Shown: positions 17,522-60,686 of the stretch, in pieces
Position numbering within the stretch: the stretch's first letter is position 1
Layout: every line of letters begins with the position of its first letter
DNA from: Elusimicrobium minutum Pei191
GTDB taxonomy: Bacteria; Elusimicrobiota; Elusimicrobia; Elusimicrobiales; Elusimicrobiaceae
DNA: 64,000 nt
NCBI RefSeq assembly: GCF_000020145.1
Contig: NC_010644.1
Location: forward strand, 1,426,001-1,490,000
Direction: 5' to 3'
The notes under the pieces: model-generated
Told to the model about the DNA's origin: nothing
Databases searched by the model: none
The model's input: the letters and a program-made list of their open reading frames with translations, nothing else
Position numbers and translations under genes: made by a program

Positions 17522-18694
17522 TTATCTTACCTGCAGTAAAGCGAAATGTAAGTATTCCGTTTCAGGCATACCCACTAAAACAGGATGGTCTTTAGCCTGG
17601 CCGCGAAGCTCAAGCATAACGACCCTTTTGCCCGCTTTATAGGCGGCCTGCCTTATAATATCAACAAAAATTTCCCTTGATATATGGTGCGAGCAGGTGG
17701 AAGTGGCCAAATAACCGCCGGGCTCCAACCCTTCCAAAGCCATACGATTGAGTTTAACATACAAGTTTATTGCTTGCGGCAGGCTTTTGCGGTTTTTTAC
17801 AAAAGCGGGCGGGTCAAGCAAAACAAAATCTGGTTGGTCGGGTAATTCTTTTTTGCCCATGGCTGATAAAAGTCTTTCGGCGTCGTCACGTTTATATGTA
17901 ACAATATCCTCAACGCCGTTTAATTTAGCATTTTTATTGGCGTATTCAACCGCTAGAGCAGAAGAGTCCGTGCCCCAAACCTGGGCGGCGCCGTTTTTAG
18001 CCGCGTAAATGCCGAAGGCGCCTATATACGAATATAAATCTAAAACAAGTTTGTCTTTAAAATAAGGTTTTAAAAACTCCCTGTTTTCACGCTGGTCAAA
18101 ATAGAAACCGGTTTTTTGCCCTTCGCTTAAAGGCACTTCATATTCAACTTTGTTTTCCTCAATAATGACGCTTTGGGGAACTTCGCCCATAATTTCAGGA
18201 TTAACGGGAAGATTTTCCATTATTCTAAAAGAACTGTCATTTTTATAAATTATTCCTTTAGGTTTAAATATTTTTTTAACCGCTTTTGTTATATCTTCTT
18301 TTAAAAGTTCCATGCCGGCGGTTAAAATATCTATAACCAAAATATCGCCGTAACGGTCAATAATAAGGCCGGGAAGCATGTCAGACTCGCCGTAAACCAT
18401 ACGCCCGTATTTCCTAAGTCCAATCTCTTTGCGGTAGCCGTAGGCCGCGTCTATATAATCTTGTATAAAAGATTTTTCCAAAGGTTCTTTACCACGTTTA
18501 AGAAGCCTTACGGATATTAAACTGTGCGGATTAAAATATCCGTACCCCACAGTATCCCCTTCCGCGCTAAGCACACGGCATAAAGAGCCGGAAACAGCGG
18601 TTTTATCTAAATTTTCAATTTCGTTTGAGAAAATCCAAAGATGCCCCGCGCGGACTCTTTTATCTTCCCTTGCTTTAAGTTTAATATCTAACAT
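17522..18694 (-). CDS. RlmI/RlmK-type 23S rRNA (cytosine-C5) methyltransferase-like protein
   Basis: A 390-residue enzyme with an N-terminal PUA-like domain (KAREDKRVRAGHLWIFSNEI, residues 6-25) and a C-terminal Rossmann methyltransferase. SAM-binding motifs are VLDLYSYIGAFGIYAA (about 219-234) and GTDSSALAVEYANKN. The catalytic LLDPPAFVKNRK is at about 298-309, and a later STCSHH supplies the Cys motif. Closest known function is E. coli RlmI (m5C1962). The start overlaps the last base of pyrE's stop (TAATG), so the two are coupled. Confidence 0.85.
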   Translation of the reverse strand: MLDIKLKAREDKRVRAGHLWIFSNEIENLDKTAVSGSLCRVLSAEGDTVGYGYFNPHSLISVRLLKRGKEPLEKSFIQDYIDAAYGYRKEIGLRKYGRMVYGESDMLPGLIIDRYGDILVIDILTAGMELLKEDITKAVKKIFKPKGIIYKNDSSFRIMENLPVNPEIMGEVPQSVIIEENKVEYEVPLSEGQKTGFYFDQRENREFLKPYFKDKLVLDLYSYIGAFGIYAAKNGAAQVWGTDSSALAVEYANKNAKLNGVEDIVTYKRDDAERLLSAMGKKELPDQPDFVLLDPPAFVKNRKSLPQAINLYVKLNRMALEGLEPGGYLATSTCSHHISREIFVDIIRQAAYKAGKRVVMLELRGQAKDHPVLVGMPETEYLHFALLQVR

Positions 18695-55953: not shown

Positions 55954-56439
55954 TTATTCTTCCATGGCCCGGAAATTCAAAGTTTTAAAAACCATAAAAA
56001 CACAGGGCGCGATAAGAGCGTTTATTAAAGCGCCTAAAAACAAACTTTTAAATCCGTGCCAGGCAGTGCCTTTTAAAAATATTATGCCTGAAAAATTGTA
56101 AAACAAAACACTGAAAATACTTAAAATAAAAATTAAAACTATTTGCGTGGGCACACTGTCTAACGCGAAACTTTTTTTGGCTAAATACATTATGCCCGAA
56201 CAAACCGTAAAAGTTAAAGCGTAAGCGCCAAACAAATTTACGCCGAAAAAATCTAAAAACAGCCCCGCGAAAAAAGCTAAAGTATATCCGTGCCATTTAT
56301 TATAAAGTGCGCATACCGCTGCAGCCACAACAAACATAAAATTAACGGCAATATTATAATTGGCGCCAAAGGAAACTAACGCCCAATGAATTACGGAAGA
56401 AATTAAAAAAACTATAATAAGCTGAATGGTTTCTCTCAT
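55954..56439 (-). CDS. mreD: Rod shape-determining membrane protein MreD
   Basis: A 161-residue protein with five hydrophobic segments, matching MreD in size, topology and position between mreC and mrdA. Visible typical piece: AFFAGLFLDFFGVNLFGAYALTFTV (about 54-78). It starts 3 nt after the mreC stop. Confidence 0.85.
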   Translation of the reverse strand: MRETIQLIIVFLISSVIHWALVSFGANYNIAVNFMFVVAAAVCALYNKWHGYTLAFFAGLFLDFFGVNLFGAYALTFTVCSGIMYLAKKSFALDSVPTQIVLIFILSIFSVLFYNFSGIIFLKGTAWHGFKSLFLGALINALIAPCVFMVFKTLNFRAMEE

Positions 56440-56442
56440 AAA

Positions 56443-57273
56443 TTATTTGTTTCCCGTTATTACAAAAACTTCCTTAATTTCAGAGGGTTTTACATACGGC
56501 ATAATATTTAGTGTTTGCGATGTTTTAAAGTCATCGCCTTTTTCCACGCTTACGACCCTTCCCGTTTTAATGCCGGCGGGAAAAATCATGCTGCTTCTGT
56601 AAGAAATAACCTCTTCCCCTTCCTGTACTTCGGTATTTAAAGAAATATACTTAAGTTTTAAATAATTACCTGAGGCCCCTTTTAAAAGACCCGCTGCGCC
56701 GCTTTTTTCAAGATATACCGCCGCGGCAAATTCTTCGTCATTAATAAGTAAAATTTTTGAGGTATTTTCACCCTCTTCAATAACCGTGCCCGCCAAACCT
56801 AAGTTTTTGCCGTCAAACCCTATAACCGCGCTCTTTAAAGTAACCCCGTTTATCAAACCCTTATCTATCGTAATAGTAGTCCATTTGGAAGGATCTCTGT
56901 AAGCTATTTTAGCCCAAACGCCTTTCCATTCTTTAAGAGGCTCCAAATTAAGAGCCTCAGTAAGGCGCGCGTTTTCTTTATGGGCTTCTTCCGCATTTGC
57001 TTTAATTAAAACAACATTTTTAATTTCTTCTTGTAAAATTGTGTTTTGGGCATGAACATTTAATAATTCTTTTACAGTTTTATTTACTTCGGATAAATAT
57101 TCCACGGATAAATGCGCCGCGCGTATTTGAGGAATAAAAATATAAGAAAGCACCGCTTTTACCGAGCTTACTACCCCCCCTAAAGGAAGTATTAAAAGCA
57201 GCACTGAAAATATTGTATAGAAAATAAAAGCTTTTTTAGACTCGTCAACCAAGTCTTCCTGAATTTTGCGCAT
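56443..57273 (-). CDS. mreC: Rod shape-determining protein MreC
   Basis: A 276-residue periplasmic scaffold with a signal anchor at about 16-37, a coiled coil at about 60-105 (VKELLNVHAQNTILQEEIKNV), and the double beta-barrel domain (ITIDKGLINGVTLKSAVIG, TSKILLINDEEFAAAVYLE). First gene of the mreC-mreD-mrdA-rodA-DUF2344-rng-amiC run. mreB is not adjacent; the divergent proB lies upstream. TATAAT directly abuts the ATG, so its transcript start is probably from a different box. Confidence 0.93.
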   Translation of the reverse strand: MRKIQEDLVDESKKAFIFYTIFSVLLLILPLGGVVSSVKAVLSYIFIPQIRAAHLSVEYLSEVNKTVKELLNVHAQNTILQEEIKNVVLIKANAEEAHKENARLTEALNLEPLKEWKGVWAKIAYRDPSKWTTITIDKGLINGVTLKSAVIGFDGKNLGLAGTVIEEGENTSKILLINDEEFAAAVYLEKSGAAGLLKGASGNYLKLKYISLNTEVQEGEEVISYRSSMIFPAGIKTGRVVSVEKGDDFKTSQTLNIMPYVKPSEIKEVFVITGNK

Positions 57274-57307
57274 ATTATATTTTAACTTATTATTGATACA
57301 ATATATA

Positions 57308-57313
57308 TATAAT
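57308..57313 (+). promoter_or_regulatory. -10 box upstream of the proB leader ORF
   Basis: TATAAT, 8 nt before an ATG at 57322, within an AT-rich 68-bp divergent region shared with mreC. Confidence 0.5.
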
Positions 57314-57321
57314 ATTTATAA

Positions 57322-57345
57322 ATGAAAAGAGAATTTTCAGTATGA
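57322..57345 (+). CDS. Putative 7-codon leader ORF overlapping proB
   Basis: ATG 57322 opens MKREFSV and stops at TGA 57343-57345. The stop overlaps the proB ATG by four bases (ATGA). The placement 8 nt after TATAAT equals that of other apparently leaderless starts here. It could load ribosomes by leaderless initiation and reinitiate them on proB. There are no proline codons, so it is not a classic proline attenuator. Translation is unproven. Confidence 0.35.
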   Translation: MKREFSV

Positions 57346-58154
57346 GACAAAACATATCTAAAAAAATGTTCCAAAAAGCCGAAATAATAGTTTTTAAAGT
57401 AGGGTCGTCATTAATAGTTGACTCGGACGGAGAAACCAGAGACTATTGGATAGACAGCCTTGCCGAGGATATAAGAGATTTGGCGTGTTTGGGTAAAAAA
57501 TCGGTTATAGTTTCCTCCGGCGCTATAGCTTTGGGCCGCAAAATTTTGGGGTTTGGCGTAAATGACAAATTAACCTTAAGCCAAAAACAGGCCGCAGCCG
57601 CCGTAGGGCAGATTAAGCTTTGCGAACTTTACAGAAATATTTTGAAAATAAAGAGAATAAAAACCGCGCAAGTTTTACTTACCCGGGAAAACGCCAATAA
57701 TGAAAAAACCTTTTTAAACGCCACAAACACCTTAAACGCGCTTTTGGCTATGAATGTAGTGCCTATAATAAACGAAAACGATACTATTTCAACAGAAGAA
57801 ATACGTTTTGGCGACAATGACAAACTAAGCGCCTTAGTATCGCAAATGGTCGACGCCGACATTTTGGTTTTGCTTTCGGATATAGACGGTCTTTATACCA
57901 ATGATCCTAAAATATCTAAAAAAGCTAAATTTGTTCCTCTGGTAAAAGAAATAAATGAAAATATTGAAAAAATGGCCGCGCCTACAAAATCCGCCTTGGG
58001 AACGGGCGGCATGGCCAGCAAAATTTGCGCCGCTAAAATGTGTGTAGCCGCGGATTGCAGCATGGTCATAACAACCGGGGCGGAATTATATCCTGTACGG
58101 AGATTAATACAAAAAGGACGATGCACATGGTTTGTGCCGGGTGATACAAAATGA
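57342..58154 (+). CDS. proB: Glutamate 5-kinase, PUA-less form
   Basis: First step of proline synthesis from glutamate. Amino-acid-kinase motifs: VFKVGSSLIV (residues 17-26), VSSGAIALGRKI, INENDTISTEEIRFGDNDKLSALV (about 146-169) and GLYTNDPK (about 186-193). GTGGMASKI binds ATP. At 270 residues it lacks the C-terminal PUA domain of E. coli ProB (367), a known shorter variant. Only a weak GAAAAGAGA-type sequence precedes the ATG. It overlaps proA by 4 nt (ATGA). Confidence 0.95.
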   Translation: MRQNISKKMFQKAEIIVFKVGSSLIVDSDGETRDYWIDSLAEDIRDLACLGKKSVIVSSGAIALGRKILGFGVNDKLTLSQKQAAAAVGQIKLCELYRNILKIKRIKTAQVLLTRENANNEKTFLNATNTLNALLAMNVVPIINENDTISTEEIRFGDNDKLSALVSQMVDADILVLLSDIDGLYTNDPKISKKAKFVPLVKEINENIEKMAAPTKSALGTGGMASKICAAKMCVAADCSMVITTGAELYPVRRLIQKGRCTWFVPGDTK

Positions 58155-59398
58155 TTGAAAAGATTGTAACCGAAATATGTAAAAACGCTAAAGAAATATC
58201 CTATTCTCTTGCCAACGCTACGACCAGGCAAAAAAATGAGGCGCTTTACTATGCGGCACAGGAGCTCGAGGATAATGTTGATGAAATTTTAGAAGAAAAC
58301 GATAAAGATTTAGACTCTTTACCAAAAGGTACGCCTAAATCATACCAGGACAGGCTGTACTTAAACGATAATAATATCGCCGCCATGGCCGACACTTTAA
58401 GAGATATCGCCGCCAGGCCTGATCCTATTAAAAAGATTCTTGATTACTGGAAGGTGCCAAGCGGTCTTCTTATTGAAAGGGTTACAACGCCGTTAGGTGT
58501 TATGGGCGTTATTTTTGAAAGCAGACCCAATGTATGTATAGACGCAGGCGCGCTTTGCTTAAAGTCCTCAAACCCGGTTATACTGCGCTGCGGGAGCGAC
58601 AGCTTTCACACCTGCAATATTTTAGTTGATCTTTTTAAACACGCTTTAAGAGACGCGGGGTTAAACCATAACGCCATACAGCTTATTCCTTTTAAAGAAC
58701 ATGAAGCCGTTGACATAATGCTTAAAATGGAAAAATATATCGACGTGCTGGTTCCACGCGGAGGCAAAAGACTTATTGAGAAAGTATCGCAAAGCCGCAT
58801 ACCGATGTTAAAGCACTTAAACGGAATTTGCCATACATACGTGCATAAAGCGGCTGATTTAAATATGGCGATAGAAATTGTTTTAAACGCTAAATTAAGG
58901 CGTGTCTCAATTTGCGGCGCCACGGAAACTTTGCTTATTGACAGAGATTGGGGCGACGATAAAATACGAGAACTGCTTGCCGCTCTTTGGAAAAAGGGCT
59001 GCGCCTTAAGAGTGGACCAATATATAAACGCTTTAATACCTCAGCTTCCTTTAGCTACCGAAGAGGACTGGGGCACGGAATATTTAGATAAAATTTTATC
59101 TGTTAAAACTGTAAACTCCGTGGGTGAAGCGGTTACGCATATAAGAACGTACGGCTCCTCCCATACGGACGCTATTGTTACCGCAAGCGCGCCCGCGGCT
59201 GAAGAGTTTTTAAATAATGTAGACAGCGCCGTTGTTATGAAAAATGCCTCAACGCAATTTTCCGACGGGGGAGAATTTGGCATGGGCGCCGAGATAGGCA
59301 TTTCCACAGGGCGCCTGCACGCGCGCGGACCCGTGGGGTTAGAGCAGCTTTGCACATTTAAATATGTGGTGCGCGGAACAGGCCAGACAAGGAGTTAA
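58151..59398 (+). CDS. proA: Glutamate-5-semialdehyde dehydrogenase
   Basis: A 415-residue aldehyde dehydrogenase-fold enzyme. VTTPLGVMGVIFESRPNVCIDA (about 114-135), VPRGGKRLIEKV and the nucleophile in NGICHTYVH (about 232-240) are typical of ProA. The C-terminal GGEFGMGAEIGISTGRLHARGPVGLEQL is family-diagnostic. Coupled to proB, and followed by proC 3 nt later. Confidence 0.97.
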   Translation: MIEKIVTEICKNAKEISYSLANATTRQKNEALYYAAQELEDNVDEILEENDKDLDSLPKGTPKSYQDRLYLNDNNIAAMADTLRDIAARPDPIKKILDYWKVPSGLLIERVTTPLGVMGVIFESRPNVCIDAGALCLKSSNPVILRCGSDSFHTCNILVDLFKHALRDAGLNHNAIQLIPFKEHEAVDIMLKMEKYIDVLVPRGGKRLIEKVSQSRIPMLKHLNGICHTYVHKAADLNMAIEIVLNAKLRRVSICGATETLLIDRDWGDDKIRELLAALWKKGCALRVDQYINALIPQLPLATEEDWGTEYLDKILSVKTVNSVGEAVTHIRTYGSSHTDAIVTASAPAAEEFLNNVDSAVVMKNASTQFSDGGEFGMGAEIGISTGRLHARGPVGLEQLCTFKYVVRGTGQTRS

Positions 59399-59401
59399 AT
59401 T

Positions 59402-60193
59402 ATGAAAATAATTTTTATGGGAGCCGGTAAAATGGGCCACGCCATTCTTTCAAGTGCCATACAAAAAAAAGCTTTAAAAAAAGCGGACGTTGTTGTAATA
59501 AAAAGAAATACAGGAGATTTAAAAAAAGAAGGTTATAAAGTTTTTAACTCTTTATCAGAGTTGCCTTCAGGTTACCTTGCCGACTTAATTGTTTACACGG
59601 TAAAACCTAATATTTTAGAGGATATTATAGAAGAATCCAAACCCTATTTAAAAGAAGACGGCTTTGTTATTTCCATAGCGGCGGGCAAAACAATAAAAAC
59701 TATGCAAAATATTTTGGGCACTAAAACAGCCGTGGTGCGCGCTATGCCGAATCTGCCCATAGCCGTAGGTTATGGAGTAACGGGCATGTACGCAAGTAAC
59801 CAGGTTAGCAAGAAACAAAAAGATTTTTGTGATAAAATTTTTAACTCTTCAGGCATATCTTTTTGGCTTAAAAAAGAGGCTGACATAAATAAAGTTATCG
59901 GCGCGGCAGGCTCAAGCCCCGCTTATATTTACGCGGTAATATCCTCGCTTGAAAAAGTGTGTTTGGGGTACGGGTTTAGCAAAGAGTTGTCTTCCAAAAT
60001 AAGTAAATATTTGCTTTTAGGCTGCGCGAAATTAATGCAGCAAACAGGCGACAGCCCCGAAGTATTAAACAAAAAAATTGCCACACCCGGCGGAACTACG
60101 GAAGCCGCTTTAAACTTTCTTGCAAAAAATAAAATTTTAGATAAACTTATATTAAAAGCCGCTAAAAAAGCGGAAACAAAATTCCCGTTTTAA
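59402..60193 (+). CDS. proC: Pyrroline-5-carboxylate reductase
   Basis: A 263-residue NAD(P)-dependent reductase completing proline synthesis. Rossmann start FMGAGKMGHAIL (residues 5-16), VVRAMPNLPIAVGYGVTGM (about 112-130), GSSPAYIYAVISSLE (about 166-180) and the C-terminal TPGGTTEAALNFL are present. With proBA it forms a complete proline operon. A pilin pseudogene starts 15 nt downstream. Confidence 0.96.
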   Translation: MKIIFMGAGKMGHAILSSAIQKKALKKADVVVIKRNTGDLKKEGYKVFNSLSELPSGYLADLIVYTVKPNILEDIIEESKPYLKEDGFVISIAAGKTIKTMQNILGTKTAVVRAMPNLPIAVGYGVTGMYASNQVSKKQKDFCDKIFNSSGISFWLKKEADINKVIGAAGSSPAYIYAVISSLEKVCLGYGFSKELSSKISKYLLLGCAKLMQQTGDSPEVLNKKIATPGGTTEAALNFLAKNKILDKLILKAAKKAETKFPF

Positions 60194-60207
60194 ATAAACA
60201 AGATTGC

Positions 60208-60686
60208 ATGAAAAAAGGTTTTACTTTAATTGAATTTCTAGCGGTTGTGTAATTATAGGAATACTTTACGCCATAGCTTTGCTTCAATATAATAAGCCGT
60301 AGCTAAATCAAGAGCTTTGGAAGCGTTTATATTAAGCAAAGCGGTAAAAGACATCCGGGAAATATACTGCCTTGCTAACGGAGTCTACAGCACGGATTTT
60401 GATGAACTCGATATTGAAATACCTGGAATAACAAGCGGAGATACCGCGGCAACAAAAAACTACAGTTTTAATATCTCCGTACAACCGCAATCGCACATTT
60501 ATGTACCCGCCGTAAAAACAACCCAATGATTTGCTTTTTGTTATGACAACATAACAACAAACTCGGTATGACGCCCAAAGAATACAATGTATTACGTATA
60601 CATTTTGGGAGATACAGAAGGAAAAAACCTTTTCTAGCAAAGCTCCTATACCCGGCGGAAGTCACTTAAGAATCCAAATAAATTAA
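60208..60686 (+). pseudogene. Decayed type IV pilin-like gene
   Basis: Starts [14 protein letters not shown], an intact prepilin leader, then loses frame. Comparison with the pilin at 63221 shows at least five lesions. These are a 1-nt deletion in the LIIGIL codons (about 60252), another after QYNK (about 60297), TGA replacing the expected Trp (60527-60529), a further TGA (about 60575) and a frame change or stop near 60633. Between them the frames still read IIGILYAIALLQY, AVAKSRALEA, DFDELDIEIPG, and end with SKAPIPGGSHLRIQIN and TAA 60684-60686. It is most similar to the 63221 gene, so probably a dead paralogue. Confidence 0.85.

What the first reader, a model, noticed from the sequence alone, without database searches (positions are those of the whole stretch)
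57308..57345. Leaderless 7-codon ORF translationally coupled to proB
An ATG 8 nt after TATAAT opens MKREFSV and its TGA overlaps the proB ATG (ATGA). proB itself has only a weak Shine-Dalgarno, so the mini-ORF could deliver terminating ribosomes to it. It lacks proline codons, so any regulation would not be by proline starvation stalling.
Basis: partly seen in the sequence, partly recalled or inferred. Interest (0 to 1): 0.5.

Follow-up and report, generated by a model that had tools for sequence, protein, structure and literature searches.

The report
Tiny leaderless ORF before proB
A seven-codon reading frame sits where this bacterium often starts leaderless messages and ends on the start codon of a proline-synthesis gene, so it may hand ribosomes to that gene; the trick is known elsewhere, and at this gene it was seen in this genome only.

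Summary
The reported sequence is there, letter for letter: TATAAT 57308-57313, ATG 57322, MKREFSV, TGA overlapping the proB ATG (ATGA, 57342-57345); the proB Shine-Dalgarno (SD) is weak, -2.9 kcal/mol. Two results add weight. This genome has a leaderless class: 43 of 696 called ORFs with an ATG candidate start, in an 844-kb sample, begin 6-10 nt after a perfect TATAAT, well above neighbouring spacings; the mini-ORF's 8 nt fits. And in 5 of 5 close proB orthologues TATAAT lies 6-11 nt before proB's own ATG. So relatives probably start proB at or near the message's 5' end; here the mini-ORF holds that place and proB lies 20 nt on, out of frame. The likeliest route is leaderless initiation at 57322, termination, and reinitiation at AUGA. 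Against a dedicated device: 0 of 5 orthologues have the mini-ORF; 1% of shuffled leaders recreate it; coupling is not commoner at leaderless spacing (1 of 3) than elsewhere (10 of 32). The same architecture is published for mycobacteria (PMC4633059). Verdict: real, plausibly functional, new member of a known kind; direct initiation at proB is the main rival. No transcript data were available.

The parts
57308..57313 (+). TATAAT, proposed -10 element of the proBAC promoter (no good -35, which is usual for this genome's leaderless-type promoters)
   Evidence: best -35 match 2 of 6 letters for proB; among 43 leaderless-type promoters 24 have 3 of 6, 12 have 2, 1 has 1, 3 have 4 and 3 have 5
57320..57322 (+). 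predicted transcription start, leader of 0-2 nt before ATG 57322
   Evidence: Inferred from the usual -10 to +1 distance (recalled); the genome's leaderless-type genes have 6-10 nt between TATAAT and ATG. No transcript data
57322..57345 (+). mini-ORF MKREFSV plus TGA
   Evidence: absent from 5 of 5 orthologous loci
57342..57345 (+). ATGA: proB start overlapping the mini-ORF stop
   Evidence: weak SD -2.9 kcal/mol
57342..58154 (+). proB, glutamate 5-kinase type, 270 aa, amino acid kinase domain only
   Evidence: PF00696 E 5.5e-43; start supported by MRQNIS matching MNKNIS/MSKNIS at the starts of three orthologues
58151..59398 (+). proA; its ATG overlaps the proB TGA as ATGA (58151-58154), with a good SD
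   Evidence: PF00171; SD -6.8 kcal/mol
59402..60193 (+). proC, third gene of the operon
   Evidence: PF14748; SD -7.8
56443..57273 (-). divergent mreC; only 68 bp separate its ATG from the proB ATG
   Evidence: PF04085 E 2.4e-30

Best explanation
The proBAC operon is transcribed from TATAAT 57308-57313 and its message begins at or within about 2 nt of AUG 57322. Ribosomes start there in the leaderless way, on the 5'-terminal AUG, translate seven codons, stop at UGA 57343-57345, and reinitiate on the overlapping AUG 57342 to make ProB; a second AUGA overlap follows between proB and proA. In the relatives the AUG at or near the 5' end is proB's own start. In this genome that position belongs to an out-of-frame AUG, and the AUGA overlap keeps proB supplied. 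Shown: the sequence, the genome-wide TATAAT-ATG class, the orthologue arrangement, the weak SD. Inferred: the transcript start, translation of the mini-ORF, reinitiation, and the direction of change from the relatives' state.
For: Leaderless class in the same genome: in-frame ATGs of long ORFs 6-10 nt after TATAAT number 24 against 4-8 in six other 5-nt bins in 464 kb, while 11 other hexamers show no comparable peak; 44 against 11-23 in seven other bins in 844 kb; one per gene, 43 genes with spacings 6:22, 7:9, 8:5, 9:3, 10:4. 35 leaderless candidates in 464 kb have a median SD energy of +0.8, against -6.2 for the best candidate start per gene. Orthologues: 5 of 5 have TATAAT 6, 8, 8, 11 and 11 nt before the proB ATG. 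proB SD is -2.9, within the random range. ATGA overlaps join 23 of 255 close co-directional ORF pairs in the 464-kb sample, and the proB-proA junction is one by sequence. Published precedent: leaderless small ORFs joined by RTGA to the next gene in mycobacteria, 23 of 220 (PMC4633059, section read); strict coupling in 13 of 14 overlapping pairs tested in Haloferax and E. coli (PMC6728339 abstract).
Against: No transcript or ribosome data. The mini-ORF is absent from all five close orthologues, so no conservation supports it. Of 23 ATGA pairs in the sample, 16 have an SD of -4.5 or stronger and only 2 are as weak as proB, so reinitiation without SD is not the norm here. Coupled mini-ORFs are not commoner at spacing 6-10: 1 of 3 against 10 of 32 at other spacings in this genome, 1 of 6 against 5 of 12 in unselected stretches of G001, 0 of 1 against 5 of 17 in G008 (small numbers). 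A 22-nt A-rich, weakly structured leader could permit direct initiation at 57342.
Confidence: 0.45

Rival explanations
1. The transcript does start near 57320, but most proB is made by direct 30S initiation at AUG 57342 on a 22-nt A-rich leader with a weak SD (AAAAGAG). The mini-ORF is a chance ATG, neutral or mildly reducing proB output.
For: About 1% of shuffled leaders recreate the arrangement and the genome has many genes. No excess of coupling at leaderless spacing. Three other genes here with an ATG at leaderless spacing that does not start them have good SDs of their own and so seem to start directly: L128 -9.5, L139 -6.4, L140 -8.6. The leader is not unusually structured (z 0.62). The mini-ORF is not conserved.
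Against: The proB SD is within the range of random sequence, unlike those three genes. An ATG at the 5' end would compete for ribosomes in a genome that seems to use leaderless starts.
Confidence: 0.35
2. proB itself is leaderless, as in relatives: a second, cryptic -10 such as GAGAAT (57329-57334) starts a transcript at or next to AUG 57342.
For: All five close orthologues have TATAAT 6-11 nt before proB. GAGAAT keeps 4 of 6 letters of TATAAT, including the second A and the last T (read). A promising second example in G002 (L203) proved to be this kind of case: a second TATAAT 6 nt before the gene's start.
Against: In this genome the peak is tied to perfect TATAAT; TATTAT, TAAAAT, TACAAT, TATACT and TATATT show no clear peak at 6-10 nt (GAGAAT itself was not counted). 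No TATAAT lies 6-10 nt before 57342.
Confidence: 0.1
3. The mini-ORF is a regulatory leader peptide that controls proBAC by stalling or attenuation.
For: It precedes an amino acid biosynthesis operon.
Against: No proline codon; no terminator-like site on the + strand in 56000-60500; fold no better than shuffles, 146 of 200 at least as stable; no Rfam match in 57000-57600; not conserved.
Confidence: 0.03

Closest known systems
Coupled small ORFs on leaderless mycobacterial transcripts (Shell et al. 2015, PMC4633059; passages and one section seen)
   Same: A leaderless start opens a 5-50 aa ORF whose stop overlaps the next gene's start as RTGA; proposed to deliver ribosomes.
   Different: There, transcript ends and ribosome profiling support it, the class is enriched (23 of 220 against 32 of 1000) and some linkages are conserved. 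Here it is one sequence prediction, not conserved in the relatives examined, not enriched.
Termination-reinitiation at ATGA gene overlaps (Huber et al. 2019, PMC6728339; abstract and two sections seen)
   Same: 4-nt stop/start overlap, with reinitiation by the terminating ribosome.
   Different: Those upstream partners are genes; here it is 7 codons, and the downstream SD is weak.
Leaderless genes with a -10 (TA-like) signal next to the start codon (Zheng et al. 2011, PMC3160421, passages and one section; Deinococcus-Thermus, PMC12340547, abstract and outline only)
   Same: TANNNT about 12 nt before the start codon; the orthologous proB genes and about 6% of sampled ORFs here have a perfect TATAAT at such a distance.
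   Different: At proB of this genome the leaderless-position start opens a mini-ORF rather than the gene itself.

Membership tests
Leaderless coupled small ORF (Shell 2015 definition) | Transcript begins with the RTG start codon | not testable with these tools
   No transcript data; TATAAT-ATG spacing of 8 nt lies inside the genome's 6-10 nt range
Leaderless coupled small ORF (Shell 2015 definition) | Small ORF of 5-50 aa | tested here: met
   MKREFSV, 7 aa
Leaderless coupled small ORF (Shell 2015 definition) | RTGA tetramer joins its stop to the next gene's start | tested here: met
   ATGA 57342-57345
Leaderless coupled small ORF (Shell 2015) | Coupled class over-represented in the genome (a property of the class in mycobacteria, not of each member) | tested here: not met
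   1 of 3 at spacing 6-10 against 10 of 32 elsewhere; small numbers, ATGA and TRATG taken together
Leaderless gene by TA-like signal (Zheng 2011) | -10 hexamer about 12 nt before the start, SD absent | tested here: met
   For the mini-ORF: TATAAT begins 14 nt before ATG 57322; SD energy +2.9; class peak
Termination-reinitiation gene pair | Translation of the second frame depends on the first | not testable with these tools
   Needs reporter fusions
Proline attenuation leader peptide | Run of proline codons | tested here: not met
   None in MKREFSV
Proline attenuation leader or T-box | Terminator or antiterminator RNA structure, or T-box | tested here: not met
   No + strand terminator-like site in 56000-60500, fold z 0.62, no Rfam match in 57000-57600

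The most novel reading that the evidence does not exclude
In this Elusimicrobium-like lineage a gene with a directly leaderless start was rewired: a new out-of-frame AUG took over the 5'-terminal position, and an AUGA overlap turned direct leaderless initiation into leaderless mini-ORF translation plus termination-reinitiation. That would be a natural before-and-after pair for how ribosome-delivering mini-ORFs arise, in a group for which my searches found no report of leaderless translation.
Probability: 0.35. Interest if true: 0.45.

Novelty: new member of a known kind. Interest (0 to 1): 0.27.

Why it matters
If true, it shows how a ribosome-delivering mini-ORF can arise from a leaderless gene, with related genomes keeping the direct form for comparison. 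The wider by-product may matter more: a clear leaderless-type gene class in this genome and in at least one relative of its genus, about 6% of sampled ORFs with perfect TATAAT alone (43 of 696), which would affect how gene starts are annotated there.

Tried and rejected
1) Origin by a 20-bp tandem duplication of the proB start. It would explain the ATGA overlap automatically, but the two 20-mers share only 10 of 20 letters and 35,261 of 100,000 shuffles of the 17 nt after the ATG do as well. Rejected.

2) A recurring family of coupled leaderless mini-ORFs in relatives. ATGA pattern matches in five relatives (102 matches) were parsed for frame: 57 of 60 for G001, G002 and G008 (three nested duplicates dropped; 7 coupled frames) and 42 of 42 for G018 and G022 (6 coupled frames). 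TGATG/TAATG matches in six genomes (84 matches): 26 of 35 for G000, G001 and G002 (9 dropped, mostly seen already as in-frame starts; 4 coupled frames) and 49 of 49 for G008, G018 and G022 (6 coupled matches). Flanks were looked at for some of these only. Long ORFs with good SDs (-6.0 to -9.0) stand behind L201, L202, L204, L206, L207, L208 and L249. L203 looked SD-less like proB, but a second TATAAT lies 6 nt before its start, and the G001 orthologue has the same, so it is plainly leaderless. Unresolved: L205 (93 aa behind it, SD -1.1), L253 (202 aa, SD -3.3), L251 (83 aa, SD 1.2), L258 (94 aa, SD 0.1); L248 has an in-frame second ATG behind GGAGG; L252 has no long ORF. One ATGA frame (G022:C49) and four TRATG frames were not followed. 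The three G000 TRATG frames lie in sampled stretches, and one search found none of them joined to a called ORF of 100 aa or more. The enrichment test gave no excess at leaderless spacing. Rejected as a class on present evidence.

3) Programmed frameshift from the mini-ORF into proB: no slippery heptamer seen on reading. Not tested further.

Full report
What was checked. The window is bases 1426001-1490000 of a single-contig genome of 1,643,562 bp. That size agrees with Elusimicrobium minutum Pei191 as I recall it; no call names the organism. All elements of the finding are in place: TATAAT 57308-57313, eight bases, ATG 57322, MKREFSV, TGA 57343-57345 overlapping proB ATG 57342. The genes downstream are proB, proA and proC by order and Pfam (PF00696, PF00171, PF14748); divergent upstream is mreC (PF04085). 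The proB-proA junction is also an ATGA overlap (58151-58154).

SD strength. Pairing energies with the anti-SD CACCUCCUUU (recalled; a table in PMC10783764, seen, gives CCUCCUUU for the phylum's classes) are -2.9 kcal/mol for proB, -6.8 for proA, -7.8 for proC and +2.9 for the mini-ORF. In 394 sampled genes the median for the best candidate start is -6.2, and 47 are as weak as proB or weaker; using the first start instead (median -5.1), 139 of 394 are. Random 16-mers have a median of -1.7 and about a third are stronger than proB.

Is leaderless initiation plausible here? I called ORFs of at least 100 aa in stretches of the same genome and measured the distance from exact TATAAT to in-frame ATGs. 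In 464 kb (403 ORFs) there are 24 at 6-10 nt against 4-8 in six other 5-nt bins, and 11 other hexamers show no comparable peak (first seen). In 844 kb (735 ORFs) the numbers are 44 against 11-23 in seven other bins. A one-per-gene count gives 43 genes, of 696 called ORFs with an ATG candidate start, with spacings 6:22, 7:9, 8:5, 9:3, 10:4. Like proB, most of these promoters have poor -35 elements. The same peak appears in G001 of the same genus (13 against 1-6) but is not clean in G008 of a sister genus (11, with other bins 0-12, two of them 11 and 12). So a start codon 8 nt after TATAAT fits a class that exists in this genome. The starts are computed, not measured.

Relatives. A search of 60 relatives and of 90 genomes of the family, partly the same, gave five close orthologues of this proB: two in the same genus (57-58% identity) and three in a sister genus (64-65%). 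The other 28 matches are 40-45% identical, in frames of 381-464 aa, and were not used; five of them (L007-L011) have no TATAAT in the 260 nt upstream. In all five close orthologues TATAAT lies just before proB's own ATG: 11, 8, 11, 8 and 6 nt in L002, L003, L004, L005 and L006; in L005 another in-frame ATG lies only 2 nt after the TATAAT. None has the mini-ORF. The divergent upstream neighbours differ: an outer-membrane type protein (L002, L003 by reading, a 442-aa ORF in the same place in L004) or a porin-like protein (L005, L006), named by eye, against mreC here. The proB start at 57342 is supported by MRQNIS matching MNKNIS/MSKNIS. The simplest reading is that the relatives' direct start is ancestral and the mini-ORF derived; I did not test this with a tree.

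Is the coupling more than chance? Shuffling the 28-nt leader recreates a coupled mini-ORF in 0.98% of shuffles. In the whole genome, 24 matches to the pattern TATAAT-N6-10-ATG-N2-32-ATGA contain two with the right frame, and only proB has a long ORF behind it. In 844 kb, out-of-frame mini-ORFs at spacing 6-10 are joined to a called ORF (by ATGA or TRATG) in 1 of 3 cases, at other spacings from 1 to 40 nt in 10 of 32 (three of those ten rows concern one gene, two of them one mini-ORF). In unselected stretches of G001 it is 1 of 6 against 5 of 12, in G008 0 of 1 against 5 of 17. So coupling as such is not enriched. In relatives several coupled cases exist, but those with long ORFs that I could resolve have good SDs, and the SD-less L203 turned out to be plainly leaderless.

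Mechanism. I favour leaderless initiation at 57322 followed by termination-reinitiation at AUGA, because proB has only a weak SD and the 5'-terminal AUG would capture ribosomes. The main rival is direct initiation at 57342 on a short A-rich leader, with the mini-ORF a neutral or mildly attenuating accident; three other genes with an idle ATG at leaderless spacing have SDs of -6.4 to -9.5. A cryptic promoter making proB itself leaderless is less likely, because the peak in this genome follows perfect TATAAT. Attenuation is unlikely.

What is known. The architecture is described for mycobacteria: leaderless transcripts with small ORFs of 5-50 aa whose stop overlaps the next gene's start as RTGA, 23 of 220, above random (PMC4633059: passages, the coupled-ORF section). 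A 2025 review names short ORFs that deliver a ribosome as a proposed use of coupling (PMC12548453, passages). Coupling at overlaps was strict in 13 of 14 tested pairs (PMC6728339, abstract; two sections read). The survey of leaderless genes in 953 bacteria names no Elusimicrobia in its text (0 occurrences), but has a group of other bacteria, 8 of 20 positive, that may include it (PMC3160421, passages and one section). A search of the held library for leaderless with Elusimicrobi gave two papers; in one (PMC10783764, passages) the phylum shows up in an anti-SD table and nothing in the passages shown ties it to leaderless genes; the other (PMC7448276) I did not open. Elusimicrobi with transcription start site gave four papers, none on this by title. 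PMC5397173 does not mention the phylum. So I found no report of leaderless translation in Elusimicrobiota, in an open-access library and by these searches only.

Verdict. The coupling is plausible, unproven, and not conserved. It is a new member of a known kind.

Noticed in passing
G000 sample of 844 kb (window, L108-L127, L209-L227); e.g. TATAAT at window 2616, 4426, 6781, 12578, 46963 on + and at 2115, 23866, 25826 counted along the - strand: Leaderless-type gene class: 43 of 696 called ORFs with an ATG candidate start begin 6-10 nt after a perfect TATAAT, 22 of them at exactly 6 nt.
   Followed up: yes
about 57240-57280, - strand: The ATG of the predicted mreC ORF directly abuts a TATAAT (spacing 0) on its own strand; if that is its -10, the transcript would start inside the predicted ORF and the true start may be further in, such as a TTG 21 nt after the TATAAT.
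   Followed up: no
57342-58154: This ProB shows only the kinase domain (270 aa); the other 28 family matches are 40-45% identical with frames of 381-464 aa, and 56 of 90 family genomes have no match at E 1e-20.
   Followed up: partly
L202 (G002) and L204 (G001): Similar secreted-type proteins of two same-genus genomes both have a leaderless-position mini-ORF ending on the gene start (MEIKEKNR with ATGA; MYGKEKP with TGATG), but with a strong SD inside; orthology was judged by eye.
   Followed up: partly
L219 (G000:C1:840001-860000), about 18203-18220: Two divergent leaderless-type genes share a palindromic ATTATATAAT that serves as TATAAT in both directions, 6 and 7 nt before their ATGs.
   Followed up: no
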